From Lumbricus rubellus (taxonomy: Eukaryota > Annelida > Clitellata > Crassiclitellata > Lumbricidae), in NCBI GenBank assembly GCA_945859605.1, contig OX243811.1:62230976-62294975 (forward strand): 64,000 bases of DNA, in the 5' to 3' direction. Each line of letters begins with the position of its first letter. Within the stretch, counting starts at the first letter, position 1. Positions 45,782 through 63,011 of the stretch are shown one piece after another. Below the pieces are notes generated by a model. That model saw only the letters and a list, made by a program, of their open reading frames with translations. It did no database searches and was not told the DNA's origin. Position numbers and translations under genes: made by a program.

Positions 45782-48700
45782 ATGATTCGATCTGTCATTG
45801 TAACATCACTGATAACCGTTTACTTCCTGAATGGGGTTATTTGTCCACCCGTCACTCAACCACCACCACCACCACCAGCCGAATCAGAAGAGGATGACAG
45901 TGAGCAAAGCAAGGTTGGTACATGACCAGTGCACCTATATGTTGGGATGCCAGGGTAATGCTGTAATCAAGCTATATTGTATAAATTGGATCTCTGCAGT
46001 ATTATGTGAATGAGGATTTATGTAGCAATGCTTACTGATGACTGCTTAGCTTAGGTCACAGAAGAGGAAAGTTTCAGGATGAAGGTGAATTGAAACGTTA
46101 TTTATAGGTTTAAGATGTACATTAGAAGTCTTGTGACAGTTGAATGTTAAAGAATAATAGGAAGACTACTCTTGGTGATGGTCCTTATAAATGGTCCTCT
46201 TAGCATGGCATGCGGTCATGCCAGTGTGGGTGATGTTACCATCAGTATATGGTCCTCTCAATATGGCATATGGTCCTACTCACATGGGTTATGCTTCTGT
46301 CAGTAATCAGTATGGTCCATGATCCTGCCAGTTTGGCTGATGGTCCTGCTGGCATTGTGACTGAGTAATTGTATGCACCTAAAGTGTGTATGGCTAACTT
46401 GGAATTATATGTTTGGGTACCTTTTCACCAAGCACTGCGATTGGGTATTGGAATGACCAACCAACTAAATAGCAGTTGCTTATCATGCAGTGGCTCCCTA
46501 TTGATCAGATTAGGGTTCACCCTGTCGTAATTTTAGCATTTTTTACTGTGCAATATTTAACTAATATTGGCCATGTGAGTAATGTAATATTTTTTAGATG
46601 TAGTCTGTGCTTAGTATGCTTGATGTTTCTTTCTATCAAGGCATCCTTATAGCAGTGCTGCTATTAATTAGGCCCCCCAGAAATTTGCGCCAAGAAACTG
46701 AAAAAATTGCGCACCAAATACGAAAAATTTGCGCCAATTTTGCGCAAATTAAAAAATTATACTTTTCGCTAGTTTTTCATTGAATCAGTGTACCAAAGTA
46801 TCTATCTAACAGTATTTTTGTCATTTAGTGTAAAGCTTTGGCGTTCTAGAAATTAGAAAATGAAGCAAAAAATGCAGTTATAAAGTTTCTATAACCATTC
46901 AGACGATTGCAAAGAATTTTAATCTTGCAAAATTTATGCCCACCGAAATCTACGCTCATTAAAAATAAGCCTACATCTTCAAGATGGTATTAATTATATA
47001 TCATATGCCTATATTATAATGAATCACCAATTTACAAAACGTGTTGAATAGTAGCCTTCCGTCTTCGTGTGCACGCCTGACGTCTATAGTACTATAGATT
47101 AAATGCGTTCGTTCTGTCATAAGCTGAGACAGCACGCGACGCTGCCGTGTGATCGCTTTGAGAAACTTCGTCTAACATATTTAATCGTGTGGCCGTGAAG
47201 TTCAGGAATTTTTTATACTTTAAGTTTTGTGCATTACTACTAAAAATAACGATCTTCAACTAAAAATTCCGATATAATTTCGCCCCATTTGGTGGCCTCC
47301 ATTTTGATTATCGCCCATCGGTTTCGTTGCTATGTTGAACTGCCGCGCGCTGAAGTGATTTTTAAGTCAATCAAAGCCCAATTTATATAAATTAGCAAGA
47401 TTTTGTAAAAAATTGCGCCAAAATCGCGCGGATTGGCAATTTTTGCGCTGTTGCGCGAAACCTGGAAATTTGCGGAAAAGTTGCGTTGCGCAAGATCGCG
47501 AATTTCTGGGGGCCCTAATTAATAAAAGTCTTGTATAACATGCCTAGGACTTGGATTCCAATTTATTTCACGTTTGAAATACAGCATAATCCCAGTAAAT
47601 GCATTGTAAGGATATTCCTGTAAAGTTGAAAACGTCGTTGCAAAATTGTTCCTGTTACAGAAAATAGCCATTTTTCCTGTTGGCACCCAGTTATGAACTT
47701 GAGTGATATTCGCTGCCCAAGTAATGATATCTTATTCATCATTTTCAGTTTGTTCTTTTTCGGAAAAAAGAAAATCCTGACATTGTTGGGTGCTGGTTTG
47801 AAGAATTGTATTGAGTTTGGATTTGAGTTGTTTGTGAATTACCATTTAGTTGACTGTTTTACAGAATATGGGCCTAGAGTATGAACGCTACCTCAAGGAG
47901 GTAGTTGGAGTTTTAGAATCCGATGAGGGCTTTAGGAAGAAGCTTGAGGAGTCTAATATATCTGAGATACAGGTAACACTGCACATTGAGACCTGTGCAT
48001 GTGGAATGCTAGGATAAAGCATGATTTCGTGTATGCTTTTCAGAATTGCCTAAATTTCAGCTGAGCACATTTAGATGTGCTTAGAGACAAGCATGGAACT
48101 CGGAAGACCAAAATGTTGAGTTTTTTAAAAAAAATCTATAATTTTTGCATTGCTGACCCAGTTAAATCTATGCAAAACCTCATAGTACCCGGCAATTAAA
48201 CTGTAAACCTTTTTGGGTGCAGAGTTCATCAATATTAGCATGAAATTCCAACTATCCCATGTTTTGAAGTAAAAATAAATTATGGTGCAATGACATAAAG
48301 GATTACTGTTCATGTCATAATAGTTCAAATTTATTAAATTAAGAGTTTGAAAACATTAATTTTTATCATTAAAAGCTTATTTCTTCTGCATTTTTGGTCT
48401 ACTGTGTACAGTTATTTTATTACCGTATTTTCGCGAATATAACACGCGGGTTATATAAGTTTTTACAAACCACGCACCATACCCGCGGGGTATACTCGGG
48501 GGCGTGTTATACAAATTATTTTTTACACAGCAAAATTTTGAACCAGATTATTTTCAGGTCATGGTCAGAAACTGCTGTAAACAGGTTTTTTAACTTACAA
48601 TACAGAGGCATGGACGTCGACGAAATGATAGGGCGTAAAGTCCGAAGTCAGTACAAATATTCGTTTATTATCATTATCATAAAATGTCAGAGCCGCAGAA

Positions 48701-51700
48701 AATCACAATTGAAAATGGAAAAAATATTATTTGACTTTAAATATAAAAGTCAAATATTACTGTATATAAATTGTAATTGTCCGTCGTCTTCAATTTTAAA
48801 TAAACGAATGAACACAATATTCTGTATTATCGCTCGCACAGCGCAGGTATGGAGTTCAGGTGTGGTTGCCCAGGCTTAGCGGGCTCACACCCTTTCTGGG
48901 CTACCTATTCTTAGGGATCCTCTCTATCACTTTAGACTATCATTTTAGCTGCTCAATTCTTATGTGCTTTATATATTATTTCCTCTGATTTATTTGAGTG
49001 TTTTTTGCATTGATCTCTTTGAATAAACGAGTTTTGATTTGATTTGATTTGAAATTAAGGCTTTGAATTGTTAAAGCGCATAATTTTGCGGTTTTCACAC
49101 AGTCGTTAATCCTCCTTTTTAGTGTCATCCGCTAGCTCTTCCACATTAAAATATAAATATTGTCCACGGCATCAAAAATGAAGTACAAATTTGCCAGAAA
49201 GGCTTGCTAATTACCAAATTGTTTCATCCCAACTTCTGTGCGGTGGCATGGCGAATGCGTGAATGTCATCTGTGAACCCGTGTAAAAGTCAGAATTTCCT
49301 GGCCAAACCCACTTTATTTCGTCAATTGATATATCAAACAATTTATATTCGCTAGATTTATCAAAACTGGCGTCATTTAAAACTAGTTCTTCAAGCAAAT
49401 GGCGATTTTATACGGGAATCTATACCTCCGCAAGGGCCGCCATCTTGGATTATTCGAATATGCGTTCGTGAAAGTAACGCGCGTTCGTTCCCACTTTAAA
49501 TATAATCTTCCACTTATATACACGCTTAAGTATGTTTTCTTGGCATAAAGACGTAAATTTGCGATTTTTTAAAACATTTTCTGGTCAAAAACCGTCGTTA
49601 TTGAGAACGCCAATACTAGGCCTAAGTGTAGAGCATAAACTCGTCATTACCCCATGTCACAATAGTAGGTTATATGCTTGTAATTTAAGGTTATATGGAA
49701 GTAGGGGTTGATTAAATAAATTCTGGTTTCAATATAACTTGAATTGTCGACAAAATATTACAATGGGCGCATACTTAAATTTACTAAAAAATACTTTTAA
49801 CAAGATCGCTTTGCTTAATGAAACCGGCTTATGTCGAAGTCTTCCTTTCAAGTTAGGCCTAAAATTTTTAAAAGACGAATACCTTACCTTGTGAAGACCT
49901 AACTGGTGCCAGCAAAGAATCAGAAACAAGGTAATTCGCGCTTACAAGGAATCGTTATATTTATAATTATAGTAGACTTGATTGAAACGTTCATTTTAAC
50001 AGGAATCTTCCATTTAAAAAAAGATTATTTTAATTTGCGTTTAATTGAACCAGTTACGAATATACACAGGCAAAAATTATATAATGTATGAGTCACATGA
50101 ACGTTAGCGTACACGTTCGAGTATCACGTGTAGTTTGATGCACGAAAATGGGTGCGTCTTATAGTCGGGTGCGTCTTATATAATTCAATTTTTACTGAAA
50201 TCGCAAAAAGTAGCGGGTTATATTCGGGTGCGTGTTATACCCGTGTGCGTATTATATTCGCGAAAATACGGTAAGTTTAAGTAAGACTACTTGCCTTTTT
50301 GTAGTTTTGTTAAATTTCTTATTGCTTCGTTTTCCTGCATGCAATGATTCCACTTTTGTTCATTGTGCTGTTACTGAAGTGCATGATGCTTGTTAACTGT
50401 TTTTTGTTCATTGTTGTAAATCTCATGTAATATTGTGTGCATTATGTTTGCTGCATGTTAATGTTAATCCTTGTAACAGCTTACTTATTTTTATTTTGTG
50501 TTGTAGAAATGTCATAATTAATATCTTTTTTGTCTATCAGGTTTATTTGTTTATGTATATATTTTATTTATTTATTTATTTAGAATGTCTATATGATTGA
50601 TAGGTTAAGTTATGTATGTTGTAACAGTATTATTTTATCTCTTTTGCCTAAGTTTCCTTTTCATCAAGATCTGCAGTTTTAATTTTAGTTGCATGTGAAT
50701 TTATATGCTTTGTTGTACGCTATCTAATATGTATGCATGTGTGTTGTACACAACTTTTGCATGTTCACATTGATGCATGCTTTTTCTCCATTCTCTCATG
50801 CTTTACAGTGCTTATTGTGATTGATTTGCTTTTTATGCTGATCACTGATTCGTTTCTGTATGTCCAGCTGAGTGAGTTGACCTATGACAAGTACTTGCAA
50901 GAGGTGATGGGCTTGCTCATGACGGACACAAACTTTGCGAACGGAATGATGAAAACAGCCGGCGGCAATAAGACGCCCGAGGTTTAGTTAAACCTTTCCA
51001 AAGTTCACTTCATCATTAATATTCATGCTTTTCTTATTCACTCTCATCTCTCTGACTTACACGCATGATTATATCAGTAACTGTTATTAGGAGTTTTGTA
51101 TATATAGGATAGCCATTCCATCACAATGATCAATCAGAAAATCTGTAGTTGATGTCCAGTGGAAACTGCCGTGTGTACACATGATAATGTTGTGTGATCA
51201 AAATGGAGCAGATATTGTGGTGGTACGCTATTAAAGGAAGGATGTTGGAAAATGTCTTTACTTTCAGCCCTGATTTGTTTATGATTGAGATTTGCACATA
51301 CAGAAATTTTCTTGGCCTTTCTGTTATTTAACCTTTCTCACTATCATGTATACCCTAAGTTTATTATTCATCTCTATTAGAGCTGGTACTGATTCAAGTA
51401 ATTTTAATAAATGACTCTCCAAAATTTAGTCTCAATTAATCAATAAAATTTTATTAATTTAGTTTAAGTTACGTAAAGCATGAAAATTGTGAAAAATGAA
51501 GTCGCTGAGTTTGGTAATACTTGCTTTGTGCAAAAAATTTGTTTTTTTGCTATGAAAACAATTTGTTTTGTCGCCATCTTGAGTTTTGTATACCTCAAAT
51601 GTAAAGTGATTGCTTAATTTTTCAATCAAAAGTTTTTGCTTGCCATCATTGTTCACCATACTGCTTACTTGGAAAATGGCTGCTTGGCATCGTGAGATAA

Positions 51701-54700
51701 TTTTAAAAAATTATTCTAAAATCATTGAATTAAAATTTTCAACGATGAATAGATGAATTGTTTGTTAAAATCCGCAGCCTTTGTCTGCATTTAAATGTTT
51801 ATCATGCTTTAAATTGTCTAATCAGGAACCAGCAATCTATGCATGATTTCTCTCTGTTTTTTTATATATGAAGTTATATTTAAGAACAGTTGTGGTAATT
51901 TTAAAAGTTATTAAGTAAAATCACAGTAGCCATATTCATTAGAAAAGTCATCGGAAATGGTGTCATATTTAATTCAGTAGCCCACACATAGTTATAAATT
52001 GTTTGAATCAAGCTCATAATAATTCGTGAAATTAATTGCAAAGTTCAAAGGTTTTGCAGAATGTTAAAATTTAATAAATACATTTAAAATCATAACATTT
52101 GCAAAGCAAAAAATATGTTTTTAATAAATACATTTAAGATCATAACATTTACAAAGCAAAAATATGACTTTAATTAATAAATCAATTTAAAATCATAACA
52201 TTTACAAAGCATAAAATATGACTTTAATACCGGTAAATACATTTAAAATCATTATATAATTACAAAGCATAAAATATGATTTTAGTAAATACATTTAAAA
52301 TCATTACATAATTGCACAGTATAAGATATGACTTTAATAATTACATTTAAAATCGTAAATTAAATTACAAAGCATGAAATATGACTTTAGTAAATACATT
52401 TAAAATCATTATATAATTACAAAGCATAAATTATTACTTTATTAAATATATTATAAATCATGACATTTACAAAGCATAAAATATCACTTGCCTATTGTTA
52501 GATTAACAGAAGCTCTTGACGATTTGTTCATTCGGAACTATTCTTTGATTAGGAAATGTTTGTTGATCTGGAACTGTAGTCATGTTAATCGTCAACTCGA
52601 TCTTCGTGCGTGTAAAATCGATGTTTTTCTATCACATGCGTTTAACGCTATCCCATTTTGTATCATCACCAAGAGCAATTTTGTGTGGAACAACGATGTT
52701 GACCCAGGCCTTCAGGCTGTTATAGTTGTTTGATCGCCACGGTTTTGTGACCACGGTGTCATCTCTGTACAGGTAGGGATTTACTTTGCCTGTTAGCTCT
52801 TCTATCTTCATTTGGCTCTTTTTGCCTGTTCTCTCTTCCATCTTTTTTTCCTCTATGGCTTTGTCGACACGGTCATTAAGGTTTTTGTCATCAGGTGGCA
52901 CCAGAAGCAGAGCAATCTGATCAACACCATTTGTTGTTATAACGTTATGGCAGAAGATGATTCTGTAGTCGTTGAATTTACTGAGGGGAACCAGAGCACG
53001 CCAGTATATTTCATTGTGTATGCCTTCTTTCGGATAAAGTGTATCTTGAGGCAGAGTACCATTTCGAAGAGTCGTTGAGAGGAACACCCCAGGGCCATCT
53101 GTGATCAGGTCCACCATCATTCCATTGTAATATTTGTCGATCGGTGAAGTTTGCAGATATGTCCAGTCTGGCTGTGGGTCCGGTTGAGTCCAGTCTGTAA
53201 CATGATACGCGTATTGTATATCATGTGACATTGTGTTTTCGTTTGTCTATCTTCACGTTGTCGTTGTTCACTATGTTCAATTCAGTTGCACAGCTGGCAG
53301 TCAATAGTTCTCGACTCAGTGGTTCTGACTGCTTTTATGCACAGATTGAAAACTGCTGAATCATGTTTCTTGGAATTCCTCCTTGACTTGATGGTTTCAT
53401 GCTTTTCTTAACGACATGACCAGCAGGCAGTGTGCTACTTTTTCTCTTTCGTATTTGCCATTGTCTTATTATTAGCTCAAAACGACATGGTTATATATAC
53501 ATTTGGGTTTTAATGCCATGTTTATGCATGCACATTGCACTCGCCCACTCACACATAGTGTCACATACGCATACATGTTACTGCACATACAGGGATGGGG
53601 AGAGAGAGACAGACAGACAGAGACAGACATAGACAGACAGACATAGACAGGCAGACAGACAGACAGAGAGACAGACAGATAGAGAGAGAGATAGATAGAG
53701 AGATAGATATAGAGATAGATAGAGAGATAGATAGATAGAGAGATAGATAGAGAGATAGATAGAGAGAGAGATAGAGAGAGAGACAGAGAGAGATAGATAG
53801 AGAGATAGATAGAGAGATAGATAGAGAGATATATAGAGAGATAGATAGAGAGATAGATAGAGAGATAGATAGATAGAGAGATAGATAGAGAGATAGATAG
53901 AGAGAGAGAGATTGGTGAGAGTGTGTTAGGGCATGAGAGGTACACAAAGATGACAGTGACATTGTACTTGTCAAGCTCCTGGGTGTAATTGCTGACTGTG
54001 ATATCGAGGGTGAGCAGTGGACGCAAAGTCTGTACTCGTCATGTTTGATGTCAAATTTGCCTTCTGCTTCGTAGTTTGTACTGCGTTGTTGCGTGAGATG
54101 AGAAAGGCATCCGATATTTTTCAGAGAGTTTCCATTGACATTTCAGCGGCATGTCAAACATTCAAACCTGACAATGACATGCAGCAGTTATGTTTTATAG
54201 ACACTATCAAACAGGTCTCAGAGGTCTAGTGGGCTGTTTCTATAATGTCGCAAGACTCTTGCTTCTTAACATACCATGCATAGTTCATGATTTTCTGACT
54301 AGATTATCAGTAGGCATTCATCAGAATCTCTAAAGACCACAATAATTGGGCAACGGGCATACTATAATAATTGGGCTATATAAGTGTTCAGCAGTAGTTT
54401 TCTTTGTTTTGTATATCTAAGTAATGCCGTTAATGTTGAGTTTTTACTGCTTGTTGGTTCGAACTTAAACATCAATTTCTTTGACCTGACAAATAACTCC
54501 CATGACCCTGACACGACCTGCCGAAATTTTAAAGCTGGCACAGCCACTGCTTCTCAATCTTCTTGATCTCTAATGACATTCAGACTGTGTAAGGAAGATA
54601 CATGTATTGGGCAGGCATGAAACCCTCCATGCATACCCACATACAATACATGCATGCTTACAAAGATGTATCTGAATACGTCCATATGCTCATCTACCTA

Positions 54701-57700
54701 TATAGGCAGGGGTGGATACAGAAACTTTTAATGGGGGGGGGGCAAAAAATTCTTGGCCTTGGGTGTGGAAAAAAATTTCGTATCCGCCAAAAAAGTTGAT
54801 GACCTTTTTTTAGTCATCTGGTCGAAATTTCGGGAAAAGTATACCTCTTGTACGCCCAAAAAGTTGACGACCTTTTTTTAGTCGTCCAGTCCAAATGTGC
54901 TTATTCTTACTATACATTGTTTGAAAACTTGTTGAAACCAAATGGGGGGGGCACGATACATGGGAAGTTCTAAATGGGGGGGGGGGGGCATGGCCGGATT
55001 AGCCCCCCACTGGATCCGAAATTGTATATAGGTATATATTAATGATTTTAGTTCTCAACCTACGTAGATCAGGGATTGGGTTGAAACTTCTCCCCTTGTT
55101 CTTGTCATTTTTCATAATATTATGAGAAAACTGTGTTTATTCTTTACTTAATATATTATTGTAGAAGAATTGAAATTTTGTCACAGCTTCCCTATTAACT
55201 TTGACTCCTCTATGTATGCATGTAAGTTCATTAATTCAAGAATTTATATAGTGCTTCTTCAAGGGGACTACTCAGAAGCACTTCTGACTCTAGCATGCCA
55301 TAAAGGACAGTTTTGAGTTTAATAAAAAAAATGCTTCAGTAATAAGCAAAGAAAGTAGACGTAGCTCCTGTGAGAGCCCATTCCAGACAACTCTGCCGAT
55401 CACAAAGAAAGTATACTCTTTAAACATGACCAACTGCCTATGCTACACTTTGGTTTAGGCCTAAAAAAAAATGCTGTGTTTCCGGTAACAGAGCTAAAAA
55501 AAATTGGGTAGGTAGGTCGGAAAATATTTTTATTTTGTAAAATATTTTTATGCAGTGACTATCCGAAAAAGTATACCCCACTAGTCTTTTTTGCACGCTG
55601 AAACAAAGTACGTGTTCTAAGCAAGTATAAACTGCCTATTTCCCGACTGTCTGCACCTAAAACAGCTCTAGAAACAGTCCTATTAATTTCATTTTGTTGA
55701 CGTCTCTTATGTTATGTCAATACAAATGTTAAAAAAAGATTTTTTGAAAAAAAAATTAAATTTTTTTTTGAAAAAAAAAATTTTTTTTGGAAAAAAATTT
55801 TTTTTAATAAAATTTTTTAACAAAAATATTTGGGTCGCGGCCGTAAAAATGGGTTGGTCGCGTTACCGGAAACACAACACTTTTTTTTACGCCTTACATG
55901 ATACTTAAATAAGGATTTAAAGCATCCTTGTCAAAAACGTTGTGTTGCCCCTCATAAAAGTCTACCGTGCAGTCTCGGCCTGTCAGAAGTATCTGATTGT
56001 ACCATACATGCAAGAGTGGTCTTCAGTACATCTACTGAACTTTGGTCTTTTTGAGAATGCCTCAAACATGAACCCAATGATGACCATCTGATAAAACAGT
56101 TACATATTTGTACTTGCAGTACATGGGCTTTTTATAGATGTGCTGTGTTGGTGGTGGTGTATGCACTTATGCAGGTACCATGATTATGCACTTAAGCAGA
56201 TACCATAACATGCACTTAAGCACATACCATATGCACTTGTGCAGATACCATATGCACTTATGCAGAGACCATATGCACTTAAGCACATACCATATGCACT
56301 TGTGCAGATACCATATGCACTTATGCAGGTACCATATGCACTTGTGCAGATACCATATGCACTTAAGCAGGTACCATATGCACTTATGCCCAGCTGCAGA
56401 ATCACCTGAATTGGGACATTCCAAATTAGAGACAAACTGCATCCTCGACATTTTAATTGAAAAACATTAAAAAGACATTGAAAAAACATGTACTGGTAGA
56501 TTATGTTTGTTTATTAGAATTTTATTCTTCAACTGGTGTTGATTCAATTTAGACCGGAGAAATAGCCAAGCACTTGGACTTTGTCGGGCATGGAATTCGA
56601 ACAAAACTCGACGAAATAAAGCGAAAAGAATTGGATCGACTACGACAAATCATGCGACTTAAAGCATACTTACAGAATAGTAAGTCGTCAGTTGGGATTT
56701 GTTGGATACTTTTTTAAGAATTCTCTCTTATCAGAACACTTGTTTATGTTCCTGTGGCTTCATTCAGTTTTATTCAGTGCTTATGAATAATTATGAATAC
56801 TCATGAATAATTATGAATAATTACGAATGCTAATGAGTTATTATTATATTATGCACCATTAGCTAATGGCCAGGCATCAACCAATGGCACCGAGCAATTA
56901 TGAGTGAAGGACTTGCTCCAGTCCCTACACAGCAGCCATCCATATCATTTGAACCTATTCTGTCTGCATAATAAGATGAGTACTGTGACCATTAACTACC
57001 ATTTGTCAATTTGCCATGTTTGAATTTTAATTAGCACTCGGAATTTTGCAACTGTGCCTTTAAGCCGATTTTTAGGACATTTAGCAGCAAATGTCTATTT
57101 AGTAATAAAAGCACAATTAGTATTAATTACTGTTCAGATATAGATTTCAATTCCTCATCAAGTTCATGCTCTGTCTTCTCATTTTTAAATCACTTCATGG
57201 AGCTGCACCTGAGTACTGCGTGATTATGCCTGCTTTTTTAAGACTCATTCCTTCGGCTCCCGATCATCTGAGTGTGCGGAGGTTGAGGACATGCTTTGGT
57301 AATCGTGCTTTCCCGGCCACTGGTCCTCCTTACTTTAACACATTTCCTTCCACTGTTCAATCGACTGGCTCAGTGTGCTCTTTTAAAGCTATGCTAAAAC
57401 ACACTTGTTCTCTAAGGCTTATCTTACCTGTACACTGCCAGTGGCGGCGCCAGGATTTCAGTTTTGGGGGGCTGAACTTTCGTCAGAAAATTTTCCATTT
57501 ACACCGCCAAAATTTCTGATGAGCTTTTTTTTAGTCATCTGGTCGAAATGTTGCGAAAATTTTCCATTTTCACCGCCAAAATTTCTGATGACCTTCTTTT
57601 TTAGTCATCGTGCTTCCAATTTTTGGGGGCTGAACGTCGAAAATTGGCATTTTTACATGGCAAAAAAATGGATCGACTACTTTGGGGGGCTTAGCCCTCC

Positions 57701-60700
57701 TGCCACCGCCACTGTATGCTGCTTTGTATGGGCATCCTTGTAATGGCAGGGCCATTTTACGGCACCATATGAATTTTTGTAATTATTATTATTACTAAAT
57801 CAAATTAAGTTATTAATACAAGAGCTTCCATATGTGTTGGTACTCAGGATTATGCACCGTGTACTTCAGGAGTTATCTATAGATTACTACAGGATAATTG
57901 TGGGATTGTGTTTAAGGTTTGAGAGCATCGCATCCAAACATCGATCTTCCAGAGATCGACAAGGAACGAGTGCTCGGACATCTCGATCATGCCAATCCAA
58001 ACAGCTTTGAGGTTTCTGACCTTGCCAAGCTTATCCAAAAGGTTGGTCTTGTGTGCATGAGCCATTGCGCATATGATATTACGTAGCATATAGCACAGCG
58101 CATGGGTTACATGGCTGCCTGTGTCTCATTAGTTGCAGCGTGCGTCTGGCCTGGACCATCTCCCTTACTTTTAAAGGCTAAGTAAAATGAAGTCACCAAC
58201 ACTCCTTAATTATGACTGCCTGACTTTCAAAGCTATTTAAAAGACAATGAAACTTCACTGCATTGATGCTGTAATTTAACAGCAGTGATCACTTTACATG
58301 CAGTTTACATTGAGTGCAATATTAATCTGCAATTTTTCTGATGACTGTAGGCTTCTAAAGATCTCGGAGATATTGATAGGAAGCGAAAGGAAGAGTTCAA
58401 GAACTATGAGATGGAAAAGGAACATCTTCGGCGTCAACAGCTCCAGAGTCTCAATGAATCGCAGCGTGTCGAAGAGGAAAAGAAATTCGAGGAAATGCAG
58501 AAGAAACACGACGATCATCCGAAACTACATCATCCGGTGAGAATTGAAAACTTCAACAAATTATCAATATTTGTGGTATGTATGTATATAATGTATGTCT
58601 GTATGAGCACTTGTTATAGCGTCCCTTCTGAGAGGTGCTCTCGACTACAGTGCAGCTACTGAATCAGAGTTTCACGCCAAAGCGCATGAGCAAATGCGAG
58701 TGAATTACTTGCTCAGGGTCTCTAGGCTGTCCCTAGTTGATTACTAACAACTTTGCAATGGAAGGAAACACTGATTTGTATTATATTGGCATGTGTGTAT
58801 TAATGCGGAAGCTCTTAACAATTTTTTGGCACATTACACACCTAAACTTGCAGCCAAATTTAGACATGTGCTGTGAAAGTTCGTGACACACCAATAATCT
58901 TCACTGCACACCACCAATACACCATGTTATGCACCACACTGCCAGCCAATTCGTGACACACTACTGTGTTGTGACACACTGGTTAAGAACCCCTGCAATA
59001 AAACTATGTTTTGTTATTTGTGCTTCTTCCATTGTGGCGCTTTTAATTCTGTGTGATTCACTTTTGTAGGGTAATGAAGAACAGCTAAAGGAAGTCTGGG
59101 AGGAGTCCGACGGTTTGAACAAAAATGACTTTGATCCAAAGACCTTCTTTCATCTGCATGGTATTTACTAATCTGATCTTAATCTAACCTAATCTAATAA
59201 TGAACATTTGTAAAGCGCTTCTCATAGCAGAGCTTTTCATAAACGCTGTCAGCGTGACAGGCCCGTGAAAGAGAAAGGTCTTCAAGCAGCGAACAGATGC
59301 AGGTGAAATCCCTGCCAGAATCCTGCTGCGAATTGCAGGGAAGGGTCATTTCGCATTGAGAGACCACAATAACGAAAGCCCAATGCTGGGTTAATGAGGT
59401 TCATGAGAGAGGTACAAATAGATCAAGGCGGTCCTTTCATCACTAACTCACACTCGTATGTCTGAGTTTTGTGTGCGAGTGTGTGCATGTAAGTGTGTGC
59501 AAGTGTAGATATAGTGTAGATAACTAGATATTTAAATGTACATATGATATGAAATGTCTTATACCATACAACGGCACAGTGGTCCTTTTACTTAGTTTGC
59601 TGGTCTGTACTTCAAAGATTTCGTTCTGTGCCTCTTGTGTGTTCACCAGCCTTGTAACCGTTACCGTATGATTTGTGAATGGCTGGCACACAAACTGGAA
59701 GTTCAAAATGAAAGCCTTGCCTCCCTAAGTTGTTCCACCAGCGATATCAGAGCTTTACTCTGCTTTCCAAGCTGATTAGGATCTAGTTCCTGTTCCTTTT
59801 TGAACCTATCAAACTTTGTTCAATTAAATTTACTATCTATATCTGTTACAGTTCGCTTACATGGAATAAACATGAAAACATTTTTTAAATGTTTACGAAA
59901 ACATTTTTTAAATGTTTTCCTTGGTTTGTTTACAATTTTTCATTAATTAATTCATTCGTTCAAGTATTTGTGTAGCACCTCTTGAAGGAAGCTACTCAGA
60001 GATGCTCCCGACTCTAGCATGGCCAAAAAGAACAGTTTTCAAATGCTTGTTGAATGTATGTATGTATAATTGTATATATGGACATTTGCACGACGCTTTG
60101 CTATAACTTCACGAAGGTGTTTAAATTGTCATTGTGGTTACACGTGTGCTGCATTGTTTGCGTTGATTGTAGACACAAATGGAGATGGATTTCTCGATGC
60201 GGCTGAGGTGGAAGCGCTTTTCCAGAAGGAGGTTAGTAAGGACACTGTTGTTTAACCTTTTGTTTAACTTTACTAACCTGCTGCTGCAGCTCCATTTAAA
60301 TAGCCGTTCTTAATTTTTCTTTGAATACTGACTTCCTACTTGTCATGCATTTTTAGAGCCAATGTAATGTTTTCTTTATGCCATATGATAATGATATGCA
60401 TCATCAGTATCATCATCATTGCATATTTATTGCCATCTAATCTTAAGTTCTGGAGGGTGTTATCATGATGCATAATCAACATTAATACCATCATCATTAC
60501 CATCATCAATACTGTCATCATCAATACTGTCATCATCATCATGATGATATCGTCATCATCTTCTATACTGACAGCATCATCAATATCGTCATCATCATCA
60601 TGATGATATCGTCATCATCTTCTATACTGACATCATCATCATCAACATCGTCATCATTATCTATGTACTATCATCATCATCAATACTGTTATCAGTATAA

Positions 60701-63011
60701 TCGATATCATCATTCAATACCACCATTGTCCTCGTCAAAACAATCATCGTCATCATCATCATCATCAATACCGTCATCATCAATAATTCCTGCTGGCTAC
60801 AATTATCAGTGTATAAGGTAATTTATGACATTAGCATTCTTTTTCTAATCAAGATCATACTTTACACAGCGGTTTATGCACTCAACTATTCTGCTTGTGA
60901 TATTATGATAATTATGCGAATAATTATATAGCTCATTTTAGAGTGCAATTTGTCAAATGTTTGAAGTTGGTTTCATTTTTTTCTGCAGCTGGACAAGGCT
61001 TATGATCCGAATGCTCCGGAGGACGACATGTTGGAACGCTACGAAGAAATGAATCGAATGCGAGAACATTTCGTGAATGAAGTCGATCAGAACAAGGATT
61101 CGATGATCAGCATGCAAGAATTCATCGAGAACACGGAGAAAGAAGAGTTCAAGAAAGACGAGGAATGGGAGGTACGTGTTGGTTGAAAGGGAATGCGGAG
61201 TGACAGATTATGAGGAAGCTGTGAAGGGAATGGCATGTGGGGAAAGTTCAAAGGGAATGAGGAATGATGTTCAAAGGGAATGCGGAGTGACAGATTATGA
61301 GGAAGCTGTGAAGGGAATGGCATGTGGGGGAAAGGTCAAAGGGAATGAGGAATGATGTTTTGGGGAAGTTCAAAGGGCATGAGGACATGTTGGGAAGTTC
61401 AAAGTGAATACAGGTTTCAAGGTGGAAGGTAATCTAAGAAAGTAGGATATGATAATAAAAAATCCGATAAATTATTTCATTTTAAATATCATTTTAGAAA
61501 ATTCTAAGATATGATTCATGCATTTGTACTGACTATAAACTAAAGTTTACCATGAGAATAAGCTAATTGCAAGAAATAAACAACGATGCTACATAACCCA
61601 CCACGCGATATTTACATTGGATATCGACGTATGATACTGTGATGACTTCGAATCCAACATCATCAAATTGTAACATTTGATGATAGTGAAAATGAAAATC
61701 AACATGAAATTTATCAACGAATGATTGCTTTGCAGCCACTGGATTCGGAGGATGTTTTCAAGGAGGAGGAGTTGGTTGCATTTGAGAAGAACTACGATAA
61801 CGTTCTGCAGCAGAAAGAACTCGAAGAAGAGAAGCTGAAAAAGATTCGCATGAATCTCGATCGCATTGGACAATCTACGATGGTGAGTTTCTTACAATCT
61901 ACGATGGTGAGTTTCTTGCAATCTACGATGGTGAGTTTCTTACAATCTACGATGGTGAGTTTCTTGCAATCTACGATGGTGAGTTTCTTGTGGAGGTATC
62001 GAGAAAAAGGTTTATCCTCTTTTGTAATATTTCATGGCACCATATTCCTGCGTAAGTGCATATGGCACCTGCATAAGGGCCTATGGTACCTTCATAATGC
62101 ATATGGTACCTGCATAATTGCATAATTATGGTACCTGCATAAAAGCATATGGTACCTTCAAAATGCATATGGTACCTGCTTAAATGCATATAAAGTGCAT
62201 ATGATACCTGCGTAAAAGCACATGTGGTGCCTGGATAAAAGTGCACATAGTACTTGCATAAAAGTGCATATGGTGCCTGCATAAAAGTTCATATGGTACC
62301 TGCATAAAAGTGCATATGGTACCTGCATAAAAGTGCATATGGTGCCTGCATAAAAGTGCATATGGTGCCTGCATAAAAGTGCTTATAGATGGTATCCTTT
62401 GAACACATGTGGTACCTGCATAAGCACATCGTATCGTGTCTAAAAATTTATAGAGTGCCTGTTCCAACAAATGCTATTCAGAGGCGCTTTAAGCACAGAA
62501 GCCCCGCGGAGAAAGGAATGTCATAAGATGGCAAAGAGAATGAAAGTGAAAAGTGGCCTCATACTTCCCGGCCTTTGTGATTTTTACCTCAGATCTTAAG
62601 GGCGGAACAGTGAACATGTCAGTCCTCACTGTTGGTCATGATGGATTGCGTGATCTCTCTCTCATCATGCACTGTCACATGCCAAAATTGATCAGTGTCC
62701 ATTCAGACTGATCTAATCTACCATCAGACTAAGATGTCATCATCTATCGACTCATGTTGGTCTGTTGACATAGAGCAGAAGCAATATAGAATTAAATGGA
62801 AAGCCCACGGAACTTAGGTAACTTAAGATTTTAAGTTCATTTCTGAATGATGGCACAAAACATAGAGATGGAAAGGTAAAAGATCTACATAATGTTTTGC
62901 TATGTATAGATTGTGTGCTACTCTACGGATGACTTACCATACTCACTTATTTGTAGGTGCCACCGAATGCGAGGCAAAACGAACAGGTGGGACGACATGG
63001 AGCATCGCCAG
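45782..63011 (+). CDS. NUCB2: Nucleobindin (nesfatin-1 precursor-like), 3' end not seen
   Basis: Secreted/Golgi Ca2+-binding protein of the NUCB1/NUCB2 family; the symbol is tentative because invertebrates usually have one copy. Exons: 45782-45913, 47865-47972 (variant A), 50868-50981 (variant B), 56553-56679, 57917-58041, 58351-58536, 59070-59160, 60173-60231, 60989-61171, 61736-61882, 62957-63011 onward. All phases join. With variant A: signal peptide about 1-21 ([20 protein letters not shown]), proline run, nesfatin-like region, and dibasic KR 103-104 (DEIKRKE). Next come [20 protein letters not shown]-hand 1 [12 protein letters not shown] 257-268, EF-hand 2 [12 protein letters not shown] 309-320, and the coiled coil [14 protein letters not shown] near 368-381. 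The start ATG directly follows an acceptor (TTCTTTTGTAG), so a non-coding exon lies upstream. The last exon ends in phase 1 at 63011, and the C terminus was not found before 64000. Confidence 0.96.
46669..47517. mobile_element. MITE of about 850 bp rich in TTGCGC
   Basis: Ends are TAGGCCCCCCAGAAATTTGC and GCGAATTTCTGGGGGCCCTA, inverted. ATTAAT flanks both sides as an apparent short duplication. Both arms are full of TTGCGC(C/A) words. It lies in nucleobindin intron 1 of the coding part. Confidence 0.8.
47865..47972 (+). CDS. Nucleobindin alternative exon, variant A
   Basis: A 108-base, phase 0-0 exon (acceptor TGTTTTACAG, donor CAG|GTAACA) coding 36 residues. [20 protein letters not shown] resembles the human NUCB2 segment of the same position, and ISEIQ matches the conserved end. 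This is the canonical version. Confidence 0.93.
48423..50271. mobile_element. Tc1/mariner-pogo-like element, TA duplication, 1.85 kb
   Basis: Ends are CCGTATTTTCGCGAATATAA and its inverse, ending TTATATTCGCGAAAATACGG, flanked by TA. Subterminal (G)GTGCGT(C/G)TTATA repeats fill the right arm. The interior has no intact transposase. A minus-strand frame at 49207-49398 is unrecognised. A LINE-like 3' tail with (GATTT)n is nested at about 48845-49055. Confidence 0.8.
50868..50981 (+). CDS. Nucleobindin alternative exon, variant B
   Basis: A 114-base, phase 0-0 exon coding 38 residues (acceptor CTGTATGTCCAG). [18 protein letters not shown] aligns directly with variant A ([18 protein letters not shown]). 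The second half diverges and ends NKTPE. The donor is GAG|GTTTAGT, weaker than consensus. If the exon were not spliced there, translation would stop one codon later. Confidence 0.85.
52070..52487. repeat. AT-rich minisatellite, about 8 units of 50-57 bp
   Basis: Units share AATACATTTAAAATCAT, then ACAAAGCATAAAATATGACT. It lies in nucleobindin's long intron and ends about 145 bases from the stop of the antisense ORF. Confidence 0.85.
52632..53231 (-). CDS. Nested antisense ORF, uncharacterised 199-residue protein
   Basis: An intronless frame inside the nucleobindin intron before exon 56553, on the opposite strand. Its composition is protein-like, not repeat-derived. The N-terminal part has [20 protein letters not shown], then [20 protein letters not shown] and a hydrophobic strand [13 protein letters not shown]. 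The middle has a charged helix ([20 protein letters not shown]), and the end [14 protein letters not shown]. No signal peptide or membrane segment. The order YHVTD, then GVFLSTT, then a tryptophan strand faintly recalls ADP-ribosyltransferase-like folds, but I would not assign it. It could be an intron-hosted gene or a retrocopy; no poly-A tail is visible downstream. Confidence 0.6.
   Translation of the reverse strand: MSHDIQYAYHVTDWTQPDPQPDWTYLQTSPIDKYYNGMMVDLITDGPGVFLSTTLRNGTLPQDTLYPKEGIHNEIYWRALVPLSKFNDYRIIFCHNVITTNGVDQIALLLVPPDDKNLNDRVDKAIEEKKMEERTGKKSQMKIEELTGKVNPYLYRDDTVVTKPWRSNNYNSLKAWVNIVVPHKIALGDDTKWDSVKRM
53605..53920. repeat. (GATA/GAGA/GACA)n microsatellite
   Basis: About 300 bases of GACAGACA, then GATAGATAGAGA units. 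It produces long but meaningless Ser/Leu/Ile-rich frames on the minus strand. Confidence 0.97.
54707..55024. mobile_element. hAT-like MITE, 318 bp, perfect 8-bp duplication
   Basis: Flanks TATATAGG at 54699-54706 and 55025-55032. The left end is CAGGGGTGGATACAG, the right end ACTGGATCCGAAATTG. G-runs mark both arms, with AAAAGTTGATGACC-type repeats inside, related to the element at 22662. In a nucleobindin intron. Confidence 0.88.
55225..55420 (-). repeat. Dispersed retroelement 3' fragment
   Basis: TATAGTGCTTCTTCAAGGGG, then CTACTCAGAAGCAC and GACTCTAGCATG, recur with changes at 59955-60050. Reverse of the GAGCGCTTCTGAG-type LINE tails elsewhere in the window. Confidence 0.55.
56161..56399. 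repeat. 21-bp minisatellite, about 11 units
   Basis: The unit is approximately ATGCACTTATGCAGATACCA plus T, with variation at the centre (TATGCAGG, GTGCAGA, AAGCACA). It lies in the intron 150 bases before nucleobindin exon 56553. Confidence 0.95.
56885..56960 (-). repeat. SINE fragment
   Basis: Minus strand reads GTAGGGACTGGAGCAAGTCC, then TTCACTCATAATTGCTC, as in the copies at 21.6-21.9 and 58.6-58.7 kb. Confidence 0.5.
57155..57800 (+). mobile_element. CR1/L2-like LINE 3' end carrying a MITE
   Basis: The plus frame reads [12 protein letters not shown], then [20 protein letters not shown] and [11 protein letters not shown], the C-terminal tail of a LINE reverse transcriptase. It ends with GGCACCATATGAATTTTTG and (ATT)n. 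Split by the MITE at 57439-57714. In a nucleobindin intron. Confidence 0.8.
57439..57714. mobile_element. hAT-like MITE, 276 bp
   Basis: Ends are CAGTGGCGGCGCCAGG and TGCCACCGCCACTG. Flanks TACACTGC (57431-57438) and TATGCTGC (57715-57722) match at 6 of 8, a decayed duplication. Inside are two direct copies of TCACCGCCAAAATTTCTGAT-type sequence. Confidence 0.85.
58610..58740 (-). repeat. SINE fragment
   Basis: AGAGTTTCACGCCAAAGCGC, then GAGTGAATTACTTGCTCAGG, match the copy at 21790-21870. Confidence 0.5.
59190..59430 (-). repeat. Dispersed retroelement fragment
   Basis: TTGTAAAGCGCTTCTCATAG and the following sequence resemble the reverse of the GCGCTTTATAAATGG tails at 39.5 and 45.6 kb. Low similarity elsewhere. 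Confidence 0.4.
60390..60800. repeat. (ATC)n trinucleotide-rich region
   Basis: Imperfect CATCATCATCAT with a duplicated block (ATCATGATGATATCGTCATC, twice, 65 bases apart). Gives Ser- or Met-rich spurious frames. In a nucleobindin intron, just after EF-hand 1's exon. Confidence 0.9.
61181..61400. repeat. 87-bp tandem duplication, about 2.5 units
   Basis: GAATGCGGAGTGACAGATTA begins at 61191 and again at 61278. A shorter AAAGGGAATGAGG unit recurs within. It starts 10 bases after the donor of the EF-hand 2 exon. Confidence 0.9.
61871..61990 (+). repeat. 24-bp tandem repeat duplicating a 5' splice site, 5 units
   Basis: Units start at 61871, 61895, 61919, 61943 and 61967. Each contains ACGATG|GTGAGTTTCTT. 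The first unit spans the end of nucleobindin exon 61736-61882, so five identical donors lie 24 bases apart in one open frame. Each extra unit would add eight residues, VSFLQSTM. Confidence 0.97.
62041..62427. repeat. 23-bp minisatellite, about 15 units
   Basis: The unit is approximately GGTACCTGCATAAAAGTGCA plus TAT. It is the reverse complement of the 56161-56399 unit apart from a 2-base insertion. It follows nucleobindin exon 61736-61882 by about 160 bases. Confidence 0.95.

What the first reader, a model, noticed from the sequence alone, without database searches (positions are those of the whole stretch)
47865..50981. Nucleobindin has two homologous, interchangeable exons encoding the nesfatin-1 core
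Seen: exon A (47865-47972, 36 codons) and exon B (50868-50981, 38 codons) both begin and end in phase 0, sit in tandem, and encode alignable sequence (YERYLKEVVGVLESDEGF against YDKYLQEVMGLLMTDTNF). Established: in vertebrate NUCB2 this position is the mid segment of nesfatin-1 (often called M30), the part with anorexigenic activity. Inference: mutually exclusive splicing would let one gene make two versions of a peptide-hormone-like segment. I know of no described nucleobindin with this arrangement. Because both are phase 0, joint inclusion or skipping would also keep frame.
Basis: partly seen in the sequence, partly recalled or inferred. Interest (0 to 1): 0.87.

Follow-up and report, generated by a model that had tools for sequence, protein, structure and literature searches.

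The report
Swappable exons in annelid nesfatin gene
In what is likely an earthworm genome, both nucleobindin genes carry two related in-frame exons for the stretch that aligns with the active core of the vertebrate appetite peptide nesfatin-1, and splicing would likely pick one or the other, so each gene is predicted to make two versions of that core.

Summary
Exon A (47865-47972, 36 codons) and exon B (50868-50981, 38 codons) of a nucleobindin gene are homologous, in tandem, and phase 0 on both sides. The assembly matches Lumbricus rubellus (identical longest-scaffold length). A second nucleobindin gene, on contig C6, has the same A-B pair in the same order and phase. A Capitella gene model uses B alone and a Dimorphilus model has A then B, so B is older than the gene duplication. 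Transcript-sized contigs of unnamed source show an A-only form (orthologue of the window gene) and a B-only form (orthologue of the C6 gene); B joins the same two neighbour exons as A. The core of B is constrained as protein. Alternative, mutually exclusive use is the best reading but is not proven: nothing here shows both forms from one gene, and Dimorphilus is modelled with both exons together. Exon A aligns with the vertebrate M30 segment plus six residues; B keeps the hydrophobic pattern of the part needed for M30 activity and differs after it. A cluster of Rbfox-type TGCATG motifs lies before exon B in the window gene; its role is a guess. Whether earthworms release such a peptide is untested.

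The parts
45782..45913 (+). first modelled coding exon (signal peptide and start of the mature protein), ends in phase 0
   Evidence: open frame, donor GTTGGT; matched at its 3' end by P0003
47865..47972 (+). exon A: canonical nesfatin-1 core (M30-like), 36 codons, phase 0/0
   Evidence: PF25434 match; used in P0003
50868..50981 (+). exon B: alternative core, 38 codons, phase 0/0, donor GTTTAG
   Evidence: homologous to A; B-type copies in C6, P0005, P0010, P0008
50336..50779 (+). cluster of seven TGCATG (Rbfox-type) motifs in the A-B intron, before exon B; possible splice switch
   Evidence: role is a guess
47996..48001 (+). one TGCATG 24 nt after exon A
   Evidence: role is a guess
56553..56679 (+). 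next constitutive exon, end of the nesfatin-1-like region
   Evidence: PF25434 match
56619..56624 (+). Lys-Arg codons at the place of the nesfatin-1 C-terminal cleavage site
   Evidence: read from the sequence; the homology of the site is from recall and from PMC5627052 and PMC8398477, which report conserved convertase sites
57917..58041 (+). constitutive exon e5
58351..58536 (+). constitutive exon e6
59070..59160 (+). constitutive exon e7
60173..60231 (+). constitutive exon e8 (EF-hand)
60989..61171 (+). constitutive exon e9 (EF-hand)
61736..61882 (+). exon e10; the gene's 3' end beyond it was not resolved

Best explanation
This nucleobindin gene carries a tandem pair of homologous phase-0 exons, A and B, that are likely spliced as alternatives, so that one gene would make two nucleobindins that differ only in the M30-like core of the nesfatin-1 region. 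Shown: the pair is present in both nucleobindin genes of the genome; the core of B is constrained as protein; proteins of relatives hold A alone or B alone between the same neighbour exons. Predicted: both forms keep a two-helix hairpin and the hydrophobic spacing of the stretch that M30 needs for activity in rodents, while the second half of the segment changes, so partner or receptor preference would change. Guess: an Rbfox protein bound to TGCATG motifs in the A-B intron favours A and represses B, so B would be used where Rbfox is absent. That any annelid cuts a hormone from this region is untested.
For: Both exons phase 0 with AG and GT ends, all four combinations in frame. Same pair, order and phase in the C6 paralogue. 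B-only P0005 and Capitella P0010, A-only P0003, with exact joins to the neighbours. B lies on both sides of the gene duplication: window gene + P0003 100/100, C6 gene + P0005 100/99, the two pairs together 98/94, Capitella and Dimorphilus outside. B core pN 0.256 between the two genes, where constitutive exons have pS 0.80-0.99; C6 B against P0005 B 32 of 37 residues. Donors of A and B lack +5 G in 4 of 4 cases against 4 of 15 other donors, Fisher 0.018. Predicted hairpin in both forms. TGCATG cluster before B.
Against: No RNA reads could be examined. P0003 and P0005 come from different paralogues and unnamed sources, each cluster one sequence. Dimorphilus P0008 is modelled with A and B joined. 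The A-B introns are 2895 and 1489 nt and nothing in them forces exclusion. Window B evolves fast (46% identical to C6 B; full exon pN 0.411) and its donor is weak. Motif evidence for Rbfox rests on the window gene: C6 alone P 0.098, and the motif was noticed by eye first; Pfam Fox-1_C found nothing in the genome.
Confidence: 0.68

Rival explanations
1. The two paralogues have split the work: the window gene uses A nearly always and the C6 gene uses B nearly always, the other exon being a little-used remnant in each.
For: The only two transcript-like forms found are A for the window-gene orthologue and B for the C6-gene orthologue. Window B is the more diverged B.
Against: Both genes keep both exons open, in phase and with splice sites; C6 A is 83% identical to window A (30 of 36) with pN 0.081. 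Two sequences are too few to show a split.
Confidence: 0.14
2. A and B are normally joined, so the protein carries a tandem repeat of the core, with skipping of one as a minor event.
For: Dimorphilus model P0008 has A then B; the bryozoan Watersipora P0043 (isoform X1) has two A-type copies in a row. Joint inclusion stays in frame.
Against: P0003, P0005 and Capitella P0010 each have a single copy. P0008 and P0043 are annotated models that may be wrong on this point.
Confidence: 0.13
3. Exon B is a decaying or chance open frame in the window gene.
For: Donor GTTTAG lacks the usual +3 to +5 bases; the tail of window B after the core does not align well.
Against: B-type copies in C6, P0005, Capitella and Dimorphilus share nine residues with window B; with neutral change at 50% of sites the 24-codon core would keep 14 identical residues and an open frame in 5e-5 of 20,000 runs, at 40% in 2e-3.
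Confidence: 0.05

Closest known systems
NUCB2 / nesfatin-1 of vertebrates, and the NUCB precursors reported from echinoderms and oyster (PMC5627052, PMC8398477, passages read)
   Same: NUCB1_N and EF-hand domains, one core segment of the A type, Lys-Arg at the end of the nesfatin-1-like region
   Different: A second, alternative core exon; two genes in the genome, where PMC5627052 states a single NUCB copy in invertebrates
coq-2 of helminths, annelids and molluscs (PMC7434440, passages read)
   Same: Homologous tandem internal exons that swap one functional part of a protein; annelids among the animals that do it
   Different: There the two exons have equal length and exclusivity was checked with RNA-seq; here lengths are 108 and 114 (108 and 111 in C6) and no reads were seen
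Muscle myosin heavy chain clusters of mutually exclusive exons (PMC3912159, listing and abstract start only)
   Same: Tandem homologous exons used as alternatives
   Different: Muscle motor protein, several clusters; not a peptide precursor

Membership tests
Nucleobindin (NUCB) | NUCB1-like N-terminal domain | tested here: met
   PF25434 137 bits against a cut-off of 27 for the A form; B-form P0005 112 bits and P0010 109 bits
Nucleobindin (NUCB) | EF-hand pair after the N-terminal domain | tested here: met
   PF13499 35.5 bits, cut-off 30
Nucleobindin (NUCB) | Signal peptide | tested here: inconclusive
   Hydrophobic N-terminus read by eye; helix 2-19 in the model of the relative P0003; no signal-peptide program was at hand
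Nesfatin-1-type peptide precursor | Basic cleavage site at the end of the nesfatin-1 region | tested here: met
   Lys-Arg after LDEI, giving an 81-residue (A) or 83-residue (B) stretch from PPVT; start of the stretch is assumed
Nesfatin-1-type peptide precursor | Peptide is released and acts on a receptor | not testable with these tools
   Needs mass spectrometry and assays
Mutually exclusive exon pair | Tandem homologous exons of like length and same phase | tested here: met
   in both paralogues
Mutually exclusive exon pair | Each exon is found alone between the same neighbour exons | tested here: inconclusive
   A alone in P0003, B alone in P0005 and P0010, but from different genes and species
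Mutually exclusive exon pair | The two exons are not used together | tested here: inconclusive
   No joint form for the earthworm-type genes was seen, but only one sequence each; Dimorphilus P0008 is modelled with both
Mutually exclusive exon pair | Regulated choice between tissues or stages | not testable with these tools
   No RNA-seq reads reachable

The most novel reading that the evidence does not exclude
Since before the earthworm gene duplication, annelids have had a splice switch in nucleobindin that swaps just the M30-like core of the nesfatin-1 region; an Rbfox-controlled choice yields two nesfatin-like peptides of different receptor preference from each gene, up to four from the two earthworm genes.
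Probability: 0.25. Interest if true: 0.85.

Novelty: new variant of a known kind. Interest (0 to 1): 0.62.

Why it matters
The nesfatin-1 receptor and the ancient role of this part of nucleobindin are open questions (recalled). A conserved exchange of just the core would separate what must stay (the Y..YL..V...L pattern) from what may vary, and gives two natural versions of the core on one scaffold to test. The genome also holds two nucleobindin genes, against the single invertebrate copy stated in PMC5627052 (passage read).

Tried and rejected
Chance resemblance of A and B: rejected on the paralogue, the B-type relatives and the profile comparison.

More B-type proteins: a search with residues 37-84 of Capitella P0010 gave 1 hit among 4 candidates, itself; one with residues 44-150 of P0005 gave 4 hits among 148 candidates, of which only P0005 itself has B. 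The B sample is 5 sequences: window, C6, P0005, P0010, P0008. Of the 598 homologues only the best 120 were listed and could be screened.

Tree of the short segments (22 rows, 36 columns): the five B rows group at 83/78, but the bootstrap had not settled, long branches meet, and the same tree puts two vertebrate A rows beside B. I do not lean on it. The two Watersipora copies fall outside the B rows there, as long branches.

Extra nucleotide constraint on A and B: identical codons at shared residues in 28 of 42 cases against 84 of 176 in six constitutive exons, Fisher 0.038. Searches gave 0.024 with exon e8 out of register and hence uncounted. Too weak to lean on.

Rbfox: Pfam Fox-1_C had no match in the genome (it matched one bacterial control, so it is a poor test); the RRM search did not complete. 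The 567 nt before exon B hold 7 TGCATG against a mean of 1.0 in 20,000 Markov sequences, P 5e-5, but I had picked the motif by eye; a constitutive exon (e5) also has one 13 nt downstream (58054). Exclusion by the minor spliceosome or by a too short intron: judged by eye from donors and intron lengths, not computed. No fold search was run.

Full report
What is there. The window holds a nucleobindin gene on the + strand. Ten coding exons were modelled: 45782-45913, A 47865-47972, B 50868-50981, 56553-56679, 57917-58041, 58351-58536, 59070-59160, 60173-60231, 60989-61171 and 61736-61882; the 3' end was not resolved. The A form matches NUCB1_N (137 bits, cut-off 27) and an EF-hand pair. A and B are phase 0 at both ends; models with A, with B, with both or with neither stay in frame.

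Where it is from. The window is C1:62230976-62294975 of a genome of 787,420,884 bases in 368 contigs, whose C1 has 68,399,915 and C6 49,154,931 bases. The genome note of Lumbricus rubellus gives a longest scaffold of 68,399,915 bp, a span of 787.5 Mb in 380 scaffolds and a chromosome 6 of 49.16 Mb (PMC11015115, part 1 of 3 of the text read). I take the organism to be L. rubellus; the scaffold number differs by 12.

A second gene with the same pair. Exon A as a DNA query hit C6:19952348-19952445, 87% over 98 bases. The DNA there holds a second nucleobindin gene with A (36 codons, KFGLEYERYLKEVVGVLESDESFKKKLEESNISDIK) and B (37 codons, VDLLSYQKYLREVMTLLMSDTDFSQKMLDAGQELSQK), in the same order and phase, with AG and GT at the ends. 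PF25434 gave four exon matches in the genome, two in each of these genes, and none elsewhere among the 8 candidates scored. Window B as a protein query found only the two B exons at E up to 10; as DNA it found only itself.

Relatives. One search found 598 homologues and listed the best 120, which I screened by pattern and by eye. 115 have one A-type segment (LE.D) and no B; P0005 and P0010 (Capitella teleta) have one B-type segment (LM.D) and no A; P0008 (Dimorphilus gyrociliatus) has A followed by B; P0043 (Watersipora subatra, 'isoform X1') has two A-type segments; P0098 is a fragment without the region. P0003 shares 325 of 382 residues with the window A form and P0005 298 of 340 with the C6 B form. 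Their contigs have 2093 and 2621 bases for 548 and 507 codons, while the modelled part of the window gene spans 16 kb, so they are most likely spliced transcripts (inference; their source tag is 'lgn'). P0008 and P0010 are names on genome contigs, so gene models. In P0005 the upstream exon runs straight into B and B straight into the next exon, at the boundaries read in C6. Identity by exon between the C6 B form and P0005: B 32 of 37; the six exons after it 41 of 43, 39 of 41, 51 of 62, 29 of 31, 17 of 19 and 58 of 61; the first exon 31 of 47. So B is about as well kept as the rest, a little below most constitutive exons.

Age. In a tree of 25 rows built without the A/B segment, window gene + P0003 (100/100) and C6 gene + P0005 (100/99) are sisters (98/94). 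Capitella and Dimorphilus lie outside that clade, in a wider group with support 87/93. As B is found in both earthworm genes and in these two outsiders, and all share the LM.D motif, one origin before the gene duplication is the simplest account. Owenia shows A only, in two clusters from one contig; its genome could not be read.

Constraint. Between the two earthworm genes A has pN 0.081 and pS 0.508; the 24-codon core of B pN 0.256 and pS 0.444; the full B pN 0.411 and pS 0.531; four constitutive exons pN 0.055-0.198 and pS 0.80-0.99. B evolves faster than A but its core does not drift freely: 14 of 24 residues are identical, which neutral change at 50% of sites with an open frame gives in 5e-5 of 20,000 runs, at 40% in 2e-3, at 60% in none. 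The full exon is less clear: its pN nears its pS, since the tail after the core is poorly kept. Five B copies share nine invariant positions; after the second leucine of the motif 12 of 12 chosen A rows have E and 5 of 5 B rows have M.

What it would change. PMC3516497 (abstract and passages) gives M30 as residues 24-53 of nesfatin-1, PDTGLYYDEYLKQVIEVLETDPHFREKLQK, and reports that an alanine mutant of the LKQVIEV stretch loses activity while one of PHFR keeps it. Exon A aligns with M30 plus six residues. For LKQVIEV, A has LKEVVGV and B LQEVMGL; for PHFR, A has EGFR and B TNFA. Models of P0003 and P0005 (24 and 22 aligned rows, mean pLDDT 69.0 and 70.1) show two helices in each: 47-58 and 61-69 for A (block means 65-85), 51-64 and 67-76 for B (block means 62-80, and 42 before the first helix). 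A has 9 acidic and 5 basic residues, B 5 and 3. B thus reads as a second version of the same small module with a changed second half. Lys-Arg follows LDEI in the next exon; if the mature protein starts at PPVT this gives stretches of 81 (A) or 83 (B) residues. In oyster, PMC8398477 (passages) reports a conserved mid-region and a 16-residue amidated peptide from the N-terminal part, but no mature nesfatin by its method. Nothing here shows that an annelid releases such a peptide. The only solved relative found is the EF-hand part of nucleobindin 1, 1snl.

How the choice could be made. Nothing read in the introns forbids joint inclusion. The window has 40 TGCATG; seven lie within 450 nt before exon B, the densest cluster in the 64 kb, and 8 lie in the A-B intron. 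The C6 A-B intron has 3 of the 15 in that 19.8 kb, all near exon A. Pooled binomial P 1e-4, window alone 4e-4, C6 alone 0.098. The reverse motif occurs 1 and 3 times in the two introns, so the strand bias is in the window gene only. The motif was noticed by eye before the test. TGCATG is the RBFOX motif (PMC4317164, passages); that binding before an exon represses it and binding after it promotes it is recalled. The four donors of A and B all lack +5 G, while 11 of 15 other donors of the two genes have it (Fisher 0.018), as one expects of weak, regulated sites.

Verdict. A real and conserved exon pair and a good case for alternative nesfatin cores. Exclusivity, use of both forms by one gene, the Rbfox switch and any hormone role remain to be shown. 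In print: the listings (12 papers; 14; 6; 2; 3; 2) show no title or abstract start about alternative nucleobindin core exons; I read passages of PMC5627052, PMC8398477, PMC6188537 and PMC9177970 from these and found none there.

Noticed in passing
48420-50274: Stretch of about 1.86 kb with 28-nt terminal inverted repeats (96% complementary) inside the A-B intron, which looks like a DNA transposon; the TGCATG cluster lies just after it, outside.
   Followed up: partly
46662-47524: Second stretch with 28-nt terminal inverted repeats (93% complementary, 807 nt between the arms), in the intron before exon A; also transposon-like.
   Followed up: partly
61871-61990: Five head-to-tail copies of a 24-nt unit (96% matches) that holds the end of exon e10 and its donor site: five equal tandem donors 24 nt apart, so use of a later one would add 8 residues in frame each time.
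   Followed up: partly
52632-53246, minus strand: Open frame of 204 codons in the intron after exon B on the other strand; no Pfam match at E 0.01.
   Followed up: partly
P0043 (Watersipora subatra, bryozoan): Nucleobindin model 'isoform X1' with two A-type core segments in a row, the second not of the annelid B type: possibly an independent tandem duplication of the same exon.
   Followed up: partly
window gene and C6:19951000-19964000 (L003, L004): Two nucleobindin genes in one invertebrate genome, each with an orthologue in another unnamed species (P0003, P0005), against the single invertebrate copy stated in PMC5627052.
   Followed up: yes
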